A stretch of DNA of 51,528 bases from Actinomycetota bacterium (lineage in GTDB: Bacteria > Actinomycetota > Acidimicrobiia > Acidimicrobiales > RAAP-2), in contig JAJPJV010000049.1 of the NCBI GenBank assembly GCA_021324045.1, forward strand, positions 1 through 51,528, in the 5' to 3' direction. Both the position numbers and the translations under genes were made by a program. Position 1 is the stretch's first letter. Each line of letters starts with the position of its first letter. Shown piece after piece: positions 11,164-13,100 of the stretch. The notes under the pieces are model-generated. The model was not told where the DNA came from. It saw only the letters and a list, made by a program, of their open reading frames with translations, and searched no databases.

Positions 11164-11281
11164 ATTTCCCAGGGAATGGGGCGCTAGGACCGTCCTTCCC
11201 CGAGACGGCGAGCGAGGGACAGCGTGCATGTGGGGCCGTGGGATGACCCTTGCGGCCCTGGCAACCGGTGGTACCGCTTCG

Positions 11282-11287
11282 TACACT
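11282..11287 (+). promoter_or_regulatory. Probable -10 element of the wall-binding/HNH gene (leaderless)
   Basis: TACACT lies exactly 7 bases before an in-frame GTG at 11295. That GTG gives a proper signal peptide (basic APTRRFRA followed by a hydrophobic core), so the hexamer and the start support each other. Confidence 0.5.
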
Positions 11288-11294
11288 TTGGCTC

Positions 11295-13100
11295 GTGGCA
11301 CCCACGAGGCGGTTCCGGGCGATGCTTCTCCTGGCCGTGCTCGTCACAACCCTGGCAACAGTCGGTGTAGACAACGTGCACGTTGTCGCCGCCAGTCCGG
11401 TCCCGCTACAACGCATCTACGGCACGGACGCGATTGGAACCTCGATCGCCGTCTCGCAAGCGGAGTTCCCAACACCTGGGTCAGCGCAGGCGGTGGTCCT
11501 GGCGCGTTCGGACTTCTTCTCCGACGCGCTCGCCGGGGGGCCCTTGGCGACGGCGGTCGATGGGCCGCTGCTCATCACGCCTGGAGCACCGCTCTCCCCG
11601 ACGATCGACCCACGCGTGCAAGCCGAAATCCAGCGGGTTCTTCCTGTCGGGGGGACCGTCTACGTTCTGGGCGGGCCCTTGGCGATTGCCCCCACCGTCG
11701 ACCTCACCCTCCAGAGCCTGGGTTATATGACGAAACGGCTTGCTGGCGCGAACGAATACGCCACCGCCGTCGCTATCGCCGAGCAGCTCGGCAACCCCTC
11801 GACGATTTTCGAGGCCACCGGGCTGAACTTCTCCGACGCCCTCTCGGCTGTTCCCGCGGCCGCTGCAGCACACGGCGCAATCCTGCTGACCGATGGCACG
11901 GTTCAGGCGCCGGAGACTGCGGCATACTTGGCGGCTCACCCCGGAGACACCCGATTTGCAATCGGCGGACCACTCGCTGCGGCGGGCGCTGATCCTACGG
12001 CGACCGCGATCTATGGGCAGGACCTCTACGGAACTTCGGCTGCCGTGGCCACGAACTTCTTTCCACATGCCCAGCGCTTTGGTGCAGCCACAGGGATAAG
12101 CTTTCCTGACGCACTCTCAGGAGGGGCCTTCATGGGAAGGCCTGCCGTCGATGGTCCCCTCCTCCTGGTTCAGCCCTCAGGACCCCTGCCACCTGCGATC
12201 GCAAGCTATCTGGCACAAGACGCGCCCAGCCTGAGTCAGGGATTCCTCTTCGGTGGCCCGCTTGCCGTAGGTGACGACGTGCAAGCCGAACTCGAAGGCT
12301 CGTCCTCGGGTCAAGGCGCATCTTCGGGGCTTCGCTACGGACCTGGCCCGATGACGACGTACACCGTCCAGCCGCAACCGCCCCCCGGCTCCTGCCGCTA
12401 CACCTACATCGGGAGTGACCCATTGCCCGATCCGAACTGCACTCCGGGAGCGCTCAATCCTCAGGTGACCCAGAGCACGATCGGCTCCACTATCTGCCGG
12501 GAGGGCTACACGGCGTCGATCCGACCTCCGGTGAGCATTACCGAACCCGAGAAGCAGGCGTCCGCACTCGCGTACGGCTACACGGGGCCGTTTTCGACCG
12601 CCGAGTACGACCATTTGGTGCCCCTGGAGCTCGGTGGAGACCCCAACGATCCGGCGAACCTCTGGGTCGAGCCCAACGACATCCCCGGCGCCACGTCGAC
12701 GCACAACTCAAAGGACGATCTCGAGAACCGGCTCAACGCGCTGGTCTGCTCTGGGCAACTAACTCTCGCAGCAGCACAAGAGGCCATTGCCTCCAACTGG
12801 GTCACGGCATACCAGACCTACATGGGCACCTCCCCCCCTGCCTCATCGCCGCCACCACCGACAAGCGGGCCGTGGTGTACCGCCACCGCTTCCCCCGCCA
12901 ATGACGGATACCAAGGGGACTACGACGTGCACATCGAATCCAACCAGCCGAACCAGCTTGCGACCGCTTCGGATGCAAGTGACACCTGGAGCGCGTACAC
13001 CGACAGCTCCGGGTCGGCCGACATCGTCCTCTACTACACCTCGCCTGGCGAGCTCATCACCGTAACCGTCGGATCGGCTTCGTGCTCGACAACCGCTTGA
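11295..13100 (+). CDS. Exported cell-wall-binding repeat-2 protein fused to an HNH-like domain
   Basis: A 601-residue multidomain exported protein. The signal peptide (residues 1-35) has RRFRAMLLLAVLVTTLATVG. Three cell-wall-binding repeat-2 units follow, with RIYGTDAIGTSIAVSQAEFP, RLAGANEYATAVAIAEQLG and AIYGQDLYGTSAAVATNFFP, each trailed by an FSDAL or FPDAL motif and a GGPLA turn. After a linker, residues of about 370-510 form an HNH-like domain with the core YDHLVPLELGGDPNDPANLW, then NSKDDLENRL and LVCSGQLTLAAAQEAIASNW. A Pro-rich linker leads to a C-terminal beta domain with paired cysteines. The HNH-like family is common in actinobacteria but its activity is unproven. The GTG start at 11295 fits the leaderless promoter; an ATG at 11322 is the alternative. 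Confidence 0.88.
   Translation: MAPTRRFRAMLLLAVLVTTLATVGVDNVHVVAASPVPLQRIYGTDAIGTSIAVSQAEFPTPGSAQAVVLARSDFFSDALAGGPLATAVDGPLLITPGAPLSPTIDPRVQAEIQRVLPVGGTVYVLGGPLAIAPTVDLTLQSLGYMTKRLAGANEYATAVAIAEQLGNPSTIFEATGLNFSDALSAVPAAAAAHGAILLTDGTVQAPETAAYLAAHPGDTRFAIGGPLAAAGADPTATAIYGQDLYGTSAAVATNFFPHAQRFGAATGISFPDALSGGAFMGRPAVDGPLLLVQPSGPLPPAIASYLAQDAPSLSQGFLFGGPLAVGDDVQAELEGSSSGQGASSGLRYGPGPMTTYTVQPQPPPGSCRYTYIGSDPLPDPNCTPGALNPQVTQSTIGSTICREGYTASIRPPVSITEPEKQASALAYGYTGPFSTAEYDHLVPLELGGDPNDPANLWVEPNDIPGATSTHNSKDDLENRLNALVCSGQLTLAAAQEAIASNWVTAYQTYMGTSPPASSPPPPTSGPWCTATASPANDGYQGDYDVHIESNQPNQLATASDASDTWSAYTDSSGSADIVLYYTSPGELITVTVGSASCSTTA

What the first reader, a model, noticed from the sequence alone, without database searches (positions are those of the whole stretch)
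11295..13100. Exported fusion of cell-wall-binding repeats with an HNH-like domain
Three cell-wall-binding repeat-2 units are joined to an HNH-like domain (DHLVPLELGG and NLW, then a helical end) and a C-terminal beta domain with cysteines. A nuclease-like domain fixed to the cell surface could act in DNA uptake, biofilm DNA use or competition with neighbours. The ABC-2 exporter just upstream is on the same strand. The HNH-like domain is widespread in actinobacterial secreted proteins but, to my knowledge, uncharacterised.
Basis: partly seen in the sequence, partly recalled or inferred. Interest (0 to 1): 0.65.

Follow-up and report, generated by a model that had tools for sequence, protein, structure and literature searches.

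The report
Predicted surface-anchored secreted HNH-like nuclease
A bacterium, probably an actinobacterium, encodes a secreted-looking protein that joins three wall-gripping repeats to what looks like a DNA- or RNA-cutting domain from a large unnamed family, so the cutter probably sits on the outside of the cell; nothing about it has been tested at the bench here.

Summary
One open frame (11250-13100; GTG start at 11295 likely) encodes a signal-like N-terminus, three CWB2 repeats (Pfam E 9.2e-39), an HNH-like domain (12390-12827) and a C-terminal beta-sandwich. No Pfam or NCBIfam model recognises the HNH-like part of this protein, but its family is large. Models show strand-strand-helix around DH...N...KDxxE; several weak searches point to HNH nucleases. 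D, H, N, K, D, E are nearly invariant in relatives found without a DH pattern; the classical third ligand position is N or H only in part. A crude pattern finds a lipobox in 76 of 123 relatives. Among 210 loci with the domain, only the window's shows CWB2; its triplet is 76% identical to that of a peptidase-like protein of the same genome. So a resident surface anchor seems to replace a lipoprotein anchor. DNA uptake is unlikely: ComEC was not found here or in any of the 12 nuclease-bearing genomes of a 61-genome set. Most likely an extracellular nuclease for scavenging or clearing DNA; activity untested.

The parts
11250..13100 (+). whole open frame (616 codons, TTG by the mechanical rule); probable start GTG 11295, alternative ATG 11322
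11295..11393 (+). probable Sec-type signal peptide (cleavage near VVAA-S, by eye)
   Evidence: sequence; no signal-peptide program was run
11412..11699 (+). CWB2 repeat 1 (PLLI)
11736..11969 (+). CWB2 repeat 2 (AILL)
12009..12281 (+). CWB2 repeat 3 (PLLL)
12330..12389 (+). linker LRYGPGP..TYTVQPQPPPG, similar in the nearest relatives; marks where the nuclease module begins
12390..12827 (+). HNH-like domain, protein residues 381-526; domain model pLDDT 96.4, pTM 0.90
12609..12614 (+). D454-H455: predicted metal ligand and general base
   Evidence: role inferred
12657..12659 (+). N470 before the second strand (NLW)
12705..12725 (+). N486-x-K488-D489-x-x-E492 at the start of the helix; K, D, E nearly invariant, N486 variable
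12495..12497 (+). C416, possible disulfide with C500 (12747-12749): each is C in 122 of 123 rows, and the sequence of L153 lacks both
   Evidence: disulfide inferred
12858..13097 (+). C-terminal seven-strand beta-sandwich (Ig/FN3-like arrangement), shared with some relatives and with two other frames that lack the HNH-like domain

Best explanation
The protein is exported by Sec, held at the wall by three CWB2 repeats that grip a wall polymer, and carries a metal-dependent beta-beta-alpha (HNH-like) nuclease domain outside the cell. H455 would activate water, D454 with D489 (or N486) would hold one metal ion, N470 would orient the histidine, and K488/E492 would help bind the phosphate or the metal. 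It would cut extracellular DNA or RNA near the cell, chiefly for nutrient (phosphate, nucleotide) scavenging or for clearing extracellular DNA. Shown: domain order, conservation, strand-strand-helix order in a confident model, distribution, failure to find ComEC. Inferred: secretion, anchoring, catalysis, metal ligands, disulfide, substrate and role. The odd point is the anchor: 76 of 123 relatives show a lipobox by a crude pattern, and here a CWB2 triplet, used in this genome for eight other proteins including two peptidase-like ones, stands in its place.
For: Three CWB2 repeats; nine CWB2 proteins in the genome, one with a peptidase A4 domain and one with a pro-kumamolisin activation domain; CWB2 triplet 75.7% identical to that of the A4 protein L195. 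Strand-strand-helix in both models. Of nine PDB entries with Z 2 or more for the domain, eight are HNH-containing nucleases, four of them one Cas8f-HNH system; the four sequence matches up to E 10 are all HNH nucleases, E 0.09-0.27, three of them Cas8f-HNH; 88 of 123 members match a PHROG 'HNH endonuclease' at E 0.1 or better, best 1.5e-4. In rows found without a DH pattern: D454 48/48, H455 47/48, N470 48/48, K488 47/48, D489 47/48, E492 48/48; the one row without H (L014: R) also lost D489 (V). Lipobox pattern in 76 of 123 relatives. No widely recurring neighbour. ComEC not found.
Against: The window protein itself reaches no Pfam or NCBIfam model for this domain and only weak PHROG matches (best E 0.0067). 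Foldseek gives no PDB match below E 1 for the domain (best 2.4), and the VIA Z values are low (best 3.6). The classical third ligand is not general. Single relatives lack a key residue: L106 (N470 to D, E492 to A), L164 (S in place of K488), L225 (N in place of K488). No activity, location or metal has been measured. In the passages read, CWB2 binding was shown in C. difficile; the wall ligand in this organism is unknown.
Confidence: 0.62

Rival explanations
1. A nuclease of DNA uptake, which makes single-stranded or shortened DNA for import (EndA-like role).
For: Surface location would fit; a membrane nuclease of this superfamily serves uptake in streptococci (recalled).
Against: No ComEC match in this genome (96% complete) while 10 of 14 control genomes ring; 0 of 37 genomes of the window's family have a match, 19 of 24 others of the order do, and all 12 nuclease-bearing genomes of that 61-genome set, this one included, lack it.
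Confidence: 0.05
2. A toxin against neighbours, with a nuclease warhead of the polymorphic-toxin type.
For: HNH-fold clades, one with the motif DH, N, N, N, K, are common toxin warheads (PMC3482391, passages).
Against: No neighbour family (frames of 70 codons or more within 2.5 kb) spans more than three of six groups, the widest being 11 of 80 loci; these families were not annotated and smaller genes were not looked at. Relatives appear held on the cell by lipid anchors rather than delivered.
Confidence: 0.08
3. A barrier against phage or plasmid DNA at the cell surface.
For: Relatives lie in 299 of 304 pattern-matched viral-contig stretches and in 52 plasmid records, so the gene may move.
Against: No PADLOC match in 123 members; no match in 50,697 phage records, so the viral-contig hits may be host DNA.
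Confidence: 0.12
4. A binding domain that kept the fold but not the activity.
For: The third ligand position varies, and one paralogue (L014) has lost H and D, so loss does occur.
Against: Near-invariance of D, H, N, K, D, E while overall identity to the window domain is 39-79%.
Confidence: 0.13

Closest known systems
HNH / beta-beta-alpha-metal nucleases (pyocin AP41 DNase 4uhp/4uhq, Gme HNH 4h9d, HNH of Cas9 and of Cas8f-HNH)
   Same: DH (HH in AP41), PLExGG and NL block aligned by HMMER, strand-strand-helix, weak structural match
   Different: No significant E-value; signal-like or lipobox N-termini; probably disulfide-braced; near-invariant KDxxE at the helix in place of a general H/N ligand; an N-terminal stretch of about 70 residues outside the sequence match
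Tox-DHNNK clade of HNH/EndoVII toxins (PMC3482391, table passages)
   Same: Residue series DH, N, N, N, K resembles DH, N470, N486, K488
   Different: No alignment or model of that clade was at hand to test; [quoted passage not shown]
Cell-wall-anchored nuclease SWAN of Streptococcus sanguinis (PMC4118848, abstract) and wall-associated DNase SsnA of S. gordonii (PMC9744736, abstract)
   Same: Nuclease displayed on a Gram-positive surface, cutting extracellular DNA
   Different: Another nuclease family and a sortase-type anchor (both recalled); here CWB2
CWB2 surface proteins of Clostridioides difficile (PMC4973711, passages)
   Same: Three tandem CWB2 repeats at one end and a variable functional part
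   Different: Probably an actinobacterium; no nuclease is mentioned in the passages read; wall ligand unknown here

Membership tests
CWB2 wall-anchored proteins (PF04122) | three tandem repeats above the curated cut-off | tested here: met
CWB2 wall-anchored proteins (PF04122) | PILL motif in the repeats | tested here: inconclusive
   repeats read PLLI, AILL, PLLL (sequences); the proline is missing in one; role of the motif from PMC4973711
CWB2 wall-anchored proteins (PF04122) | binding to an anionic wall polymer | not testable with these tools
   needs fractionation or a binding assay
HNH / beta-beta-alpha-metal superfamily | general-base His after a ligand residue (DH) | tested here: met
   D 48/48, H 47/48 rows found without a DH pattern
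HNH / beta-beta-alpha-metal superfamily | Asn at the second strand | tested here: met
   122/123, 48/48
HNH / beta-beta-alpha-metal superfamily | His/Asn metal ligand at the helix start | tested here: inconclusive
   N or H in 108/123 and 34/48; D489 of KDxxE is near-invariant instead
HNH / beta-beta-alpha-metal superfamily | strand-strand-helix order | tested here: met
HNH / beta-beta-alpha-metal superfamily | structural match to solved members | tested here: inconclusive
   best Z 3.6, rmsd 3.8 over 79 residues; no Foldseek match below E 1
HNH / beta-beta-alpha-metal superfamily | metal-dependent nuclease activity | not testable with these tools
   needs an assay
Pfam HNH (PF01844), HNH_5, Endonuclea_NS_2 | match of the window protein at the curated cut-off | tested here: not met
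   none for the window protein; 17-18 of 123 members match weakly, best E 0.00037-0.0051. Not filed there
Polymorphic toxin | adjacent immunity gene | tested here: inconclusive
   no neighbour family spans more than three of six groups in 80 loci; genes under 70 codons not examined, families not annotated
Tox-DHNNK clade | profile membership | not tested
   no model of the clade was identified in the libraries; motif resemblance only
DNA-uptake nuclease | ComEC channel in the same genome | tested here: not met
Known anti-phage defence proteins | match in PADLOC-DB | tested here: not met
   0 of 123 members at E up to 1

The most novel reading that the evidence does not exclude
A large unnamed clade of exported, disulfide-braced beta-beta-alpha-metal nucleases in which the metal site is completed by the near-invariant KDxxE helix motif rather than by His/Asn, and which bacteria display through interchangeable surface anchors: lipid in many, a CWB2 triplet here, DGGxFxF repeats in L011 and L034, and a possible LAxTG-like tail in L028 (by eye only; Pfam finds nothing there).
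Probability: 0.4. Interest if true: 0.52.

Novelty: new variant of a known kind. Interest (0 to 1): 0.38.

Why it matters
At least 586 stretches in a collection of one genome per species encode this domain, yet no Pfam or NCBIfam model recognises it in the window protein, and 15 of the 20 listed plasmid records annotate it as 'hypothetical protein'. If it is a nuclease, it is a widespread and overlooked way in which bacteria, many of them actinobacteria, handle extracellular nucleic acid. The window adds a natural change of anchor and points to a set of CWB2 proteins in the same genome.

Tried and rejected
DNA uptake: disfavoured, ComEC not found. ABC-2 exporter link: in 80 genome loci (flanks up to 6 kb, some cut short by contig ends) the window's permease has no match, its ATPase has generic ABC matches in six loci, and the hydrolase at 6265 matches once, in L099, which is also one of the six. 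Toxin with immunity partner: no neighbour family spans more than three of six groups; within Nocardia single families reach 15 loci, as expected of one genus. Phage origin: no match in phage records. Defence: no PADLOC match. Signals between the ABC permease and this gene: no promoter- or terminator-like site, uninformative. Literature, open-licence PMC papers only: searches for cell-wall-binding repeats with HNH or nucleases and for secreted, extracellular, exported, periplasmic or surface-anchored HNH and HNH lipoprotein phrases returned nothing; one search gave one review (not opened) and two papers, of which only PMC3482391 was opened; 'DHNNK' occurs in one paper.

Foldseek then showed no known nuclease among its 50 listed rows; HNH entries appeared only in the second look, which compared 104 chains.

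Limits and dropped rows: DH was part of the search pattern, so DH conservation in L024-L183 is by construction. Alignment A1 used 16 of 23 loci (L007, L009, L013, L014, L017, L018, L023 left out). A2 and A4 hold the window and 122 of 160 loci: 37 fell to dereplication at 88% or to a length limit (fragments L102 and L149 among them), and L164, which has S in place of K488, was left out when I wrote the list; among the 160, four lack a KDxxE match (L102, L106, L149, L164). One search uses rows found by similarity only; its L210 row came out as a fragment and is left out of the counts (n = 48), while the full L210 sequence has DH and KD. Some loci of L001-L023 and L024-L103 appear to be the same genomes, so counts are not all independent. 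The lipobox count is a crude pattern and misses some. In one search some frames are cut at contig ends, so a missing CWB2 part cannot be excluded for those. The six groups are my own grouping of record titles, one of them 'other'.

Full report
Observation. The frame 11250-13100 on the + strand is open for 616 codons. Pfam finds three CWB2 repeats, E 9.2e-39 for the whole protein, and otherwise only one match below its cut-off (DUF7423, E 0.11, inside the repeats). NCBIfam matches an S-layer model in the repeats, far below its cut-off. PHROG gives matches in the repeats and two weak 'HNH endonuclease' matches at the DH block (E 0.043 and 0.2). DHLVPLELGG lies at 12609 and NLW at 12657.

The HNH-like domain. 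A 146-residue query (12390-12827) has one copy in the genome. The best-matching named records are Acidimicrobiaceae or Acidimicrobiales assemblies, from which I infer that the window is actinobacterial. Pfam matches of single members are weak but mostly of one kind: HNH 18 of 123, HNH_5 18, Endonuclea_NS_2 17. PHROG 'HNH endonuclease' phrog_589 matches 88 of 123 at E up to 0.1. A profile against the PDB sequences gives four matches up to E 10, all HNH nucleases (pyocin AP41 and three Cas8f-HNH sequences), best E 0.09.

Structure. The model of HNH-like domain plus C-terminus has mean pLDDT 90.6, that of the domain alone 96.4 and pTM 0.90. Both put a strand on EYDH (452-455), a strand on LWVE (471-474) and a helix from S487, just before KD. 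Foldseek finds no PDB match below E 1. In the second look, eight of nine entries with Z of 2 or more are HNH-containing nucleases, best Z 3.6 with rmsd 3.8 over 79 residues (4h9d); four of the eight are one Cas8f-HNH system, and the ninth is a maltose-binding-protein fusion. These Z values are low, so this supports but does not prove the fold. Among predicted viral proteins, three matches have E below 0.001; two are named HNHc domain proteins, the better with rmsd 2.0 over 123 columns.

Active-site residues. In the 123 rows of A2, D454, H455, K488 and D489 are invariant, and N470 and E492 stand in 122 of 123; N486 is N 92, H 16, R 7 and others. DH was part of the search pattern there, and one locus left out of A2, L164, has S in place of K488. 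In relatives found by similarity alone, with one fragment row left out, D454 is 48 of 48, H455 47, N470 48, K488 47, D489 47, E492 48; N486 is N 31, H 3, R 5. The one row without H (L014) also lacks D489, as expected of a dead paralogue. I therefore favour D489 as a ligand; this is inference.

Anchors. Over 123 relatives and the window, a crude pattern finds a lipobox in 76, a hydrophobic segment without one in 42 (window included) and neither in 6. Two loci, L011 and L034, have DGGxFxF repeats. L077 has an Excalibur domain and L153 PDZ matches. L028 ends with a LASTG-like motif and a hydrophobic stretch, by eye; Pfam reports nothing for it. Of 210 loci that hold the domain, only the window's own copy shows CWB2, with a profile built from this genome's repeats. 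The nearest relative (83% identity, L202) lies in another family of the order and has a lipobox-like N-terminus. The genome has nine CWB2 proteins. Of the other eight, Pfam finds a peptidase A4 domain in one and a pro-kumamolisin activation domain in another; the rest have Ig-like or no named parts above cut-off. The window's triplet is closest, among seven compared, to that of the A4 protein, 75.7%. I infer that the fusion arose in this lineage by joining a resident anchor to a nuclease module.

C-terminal domain. It is a seven-strand sandwich with Ig/FN3-like matches, best Z 8.3, rmsd 2.1 over 76 residues. It follows the HNH-like domain in nine frames, the window's included and some apparently the same genome twice, and occurs in two frames without it. 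Binding or spacing is a guess.

Role. Of the 61 near genomes, 19 have a ComEC match; none of the 12 with the nuclease does. Kinship explains much of that, since all 37 genomes of the window's family lack a match, but uptake through ComEC is disfavoured as far as the assemblies and the model go. No neighbour family recurs widely. I conclude a scavenging or DNA-clearing surface nuclease, with confidence 0.62 for the whole statement and less for the exact role.

Known or new. Wall-anchored nucleases are known (SWAN, PMC4118848, abstract; SsnA, PMC9744736, abstract), and CWB2 anchoring is known (PMC4973711, passages). The combination, and the exported HNH-like family as such, were not found in my paper searches. 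It is a new variant of a known kind.

Noticed in passing
L194-L201 (G000 contigs C27, C51, C22, C29, C16, C44, C33, C30): Eight further CWB2 proteins in the same genome, including one with a peptidase A4 domain and one with a pro-kumamolisin domain; the genome has its own CWB2 surface-protein set, of the kind known from C. difficile.
   Followed up: partly
L014 (G014 contig C36): A diverged copy of the nuclease domain with DH changed to DR and KD to KV, probably a dead paralogue, in a genome that also has an intact copy (L007).
   Followed up: partly
L006 and L032: The nuclease module is in frame with a part that looks by eye like a piece of a tyrosine recombinase, without a visible signal sequence; real fusion or accident not tested.
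   Followed up: no
L185, reverse strand 1501-2541: The C-terminal sandwich domain follows an unrelated part with no Pfam match; it may be a mobile module of secreted proteins.
   Followed up: partly
genomes G000-G036 (family f1): No ComEC match in any of the 37 genomes of the family, against 19 of 24 others of the order.
   Followed up: partly
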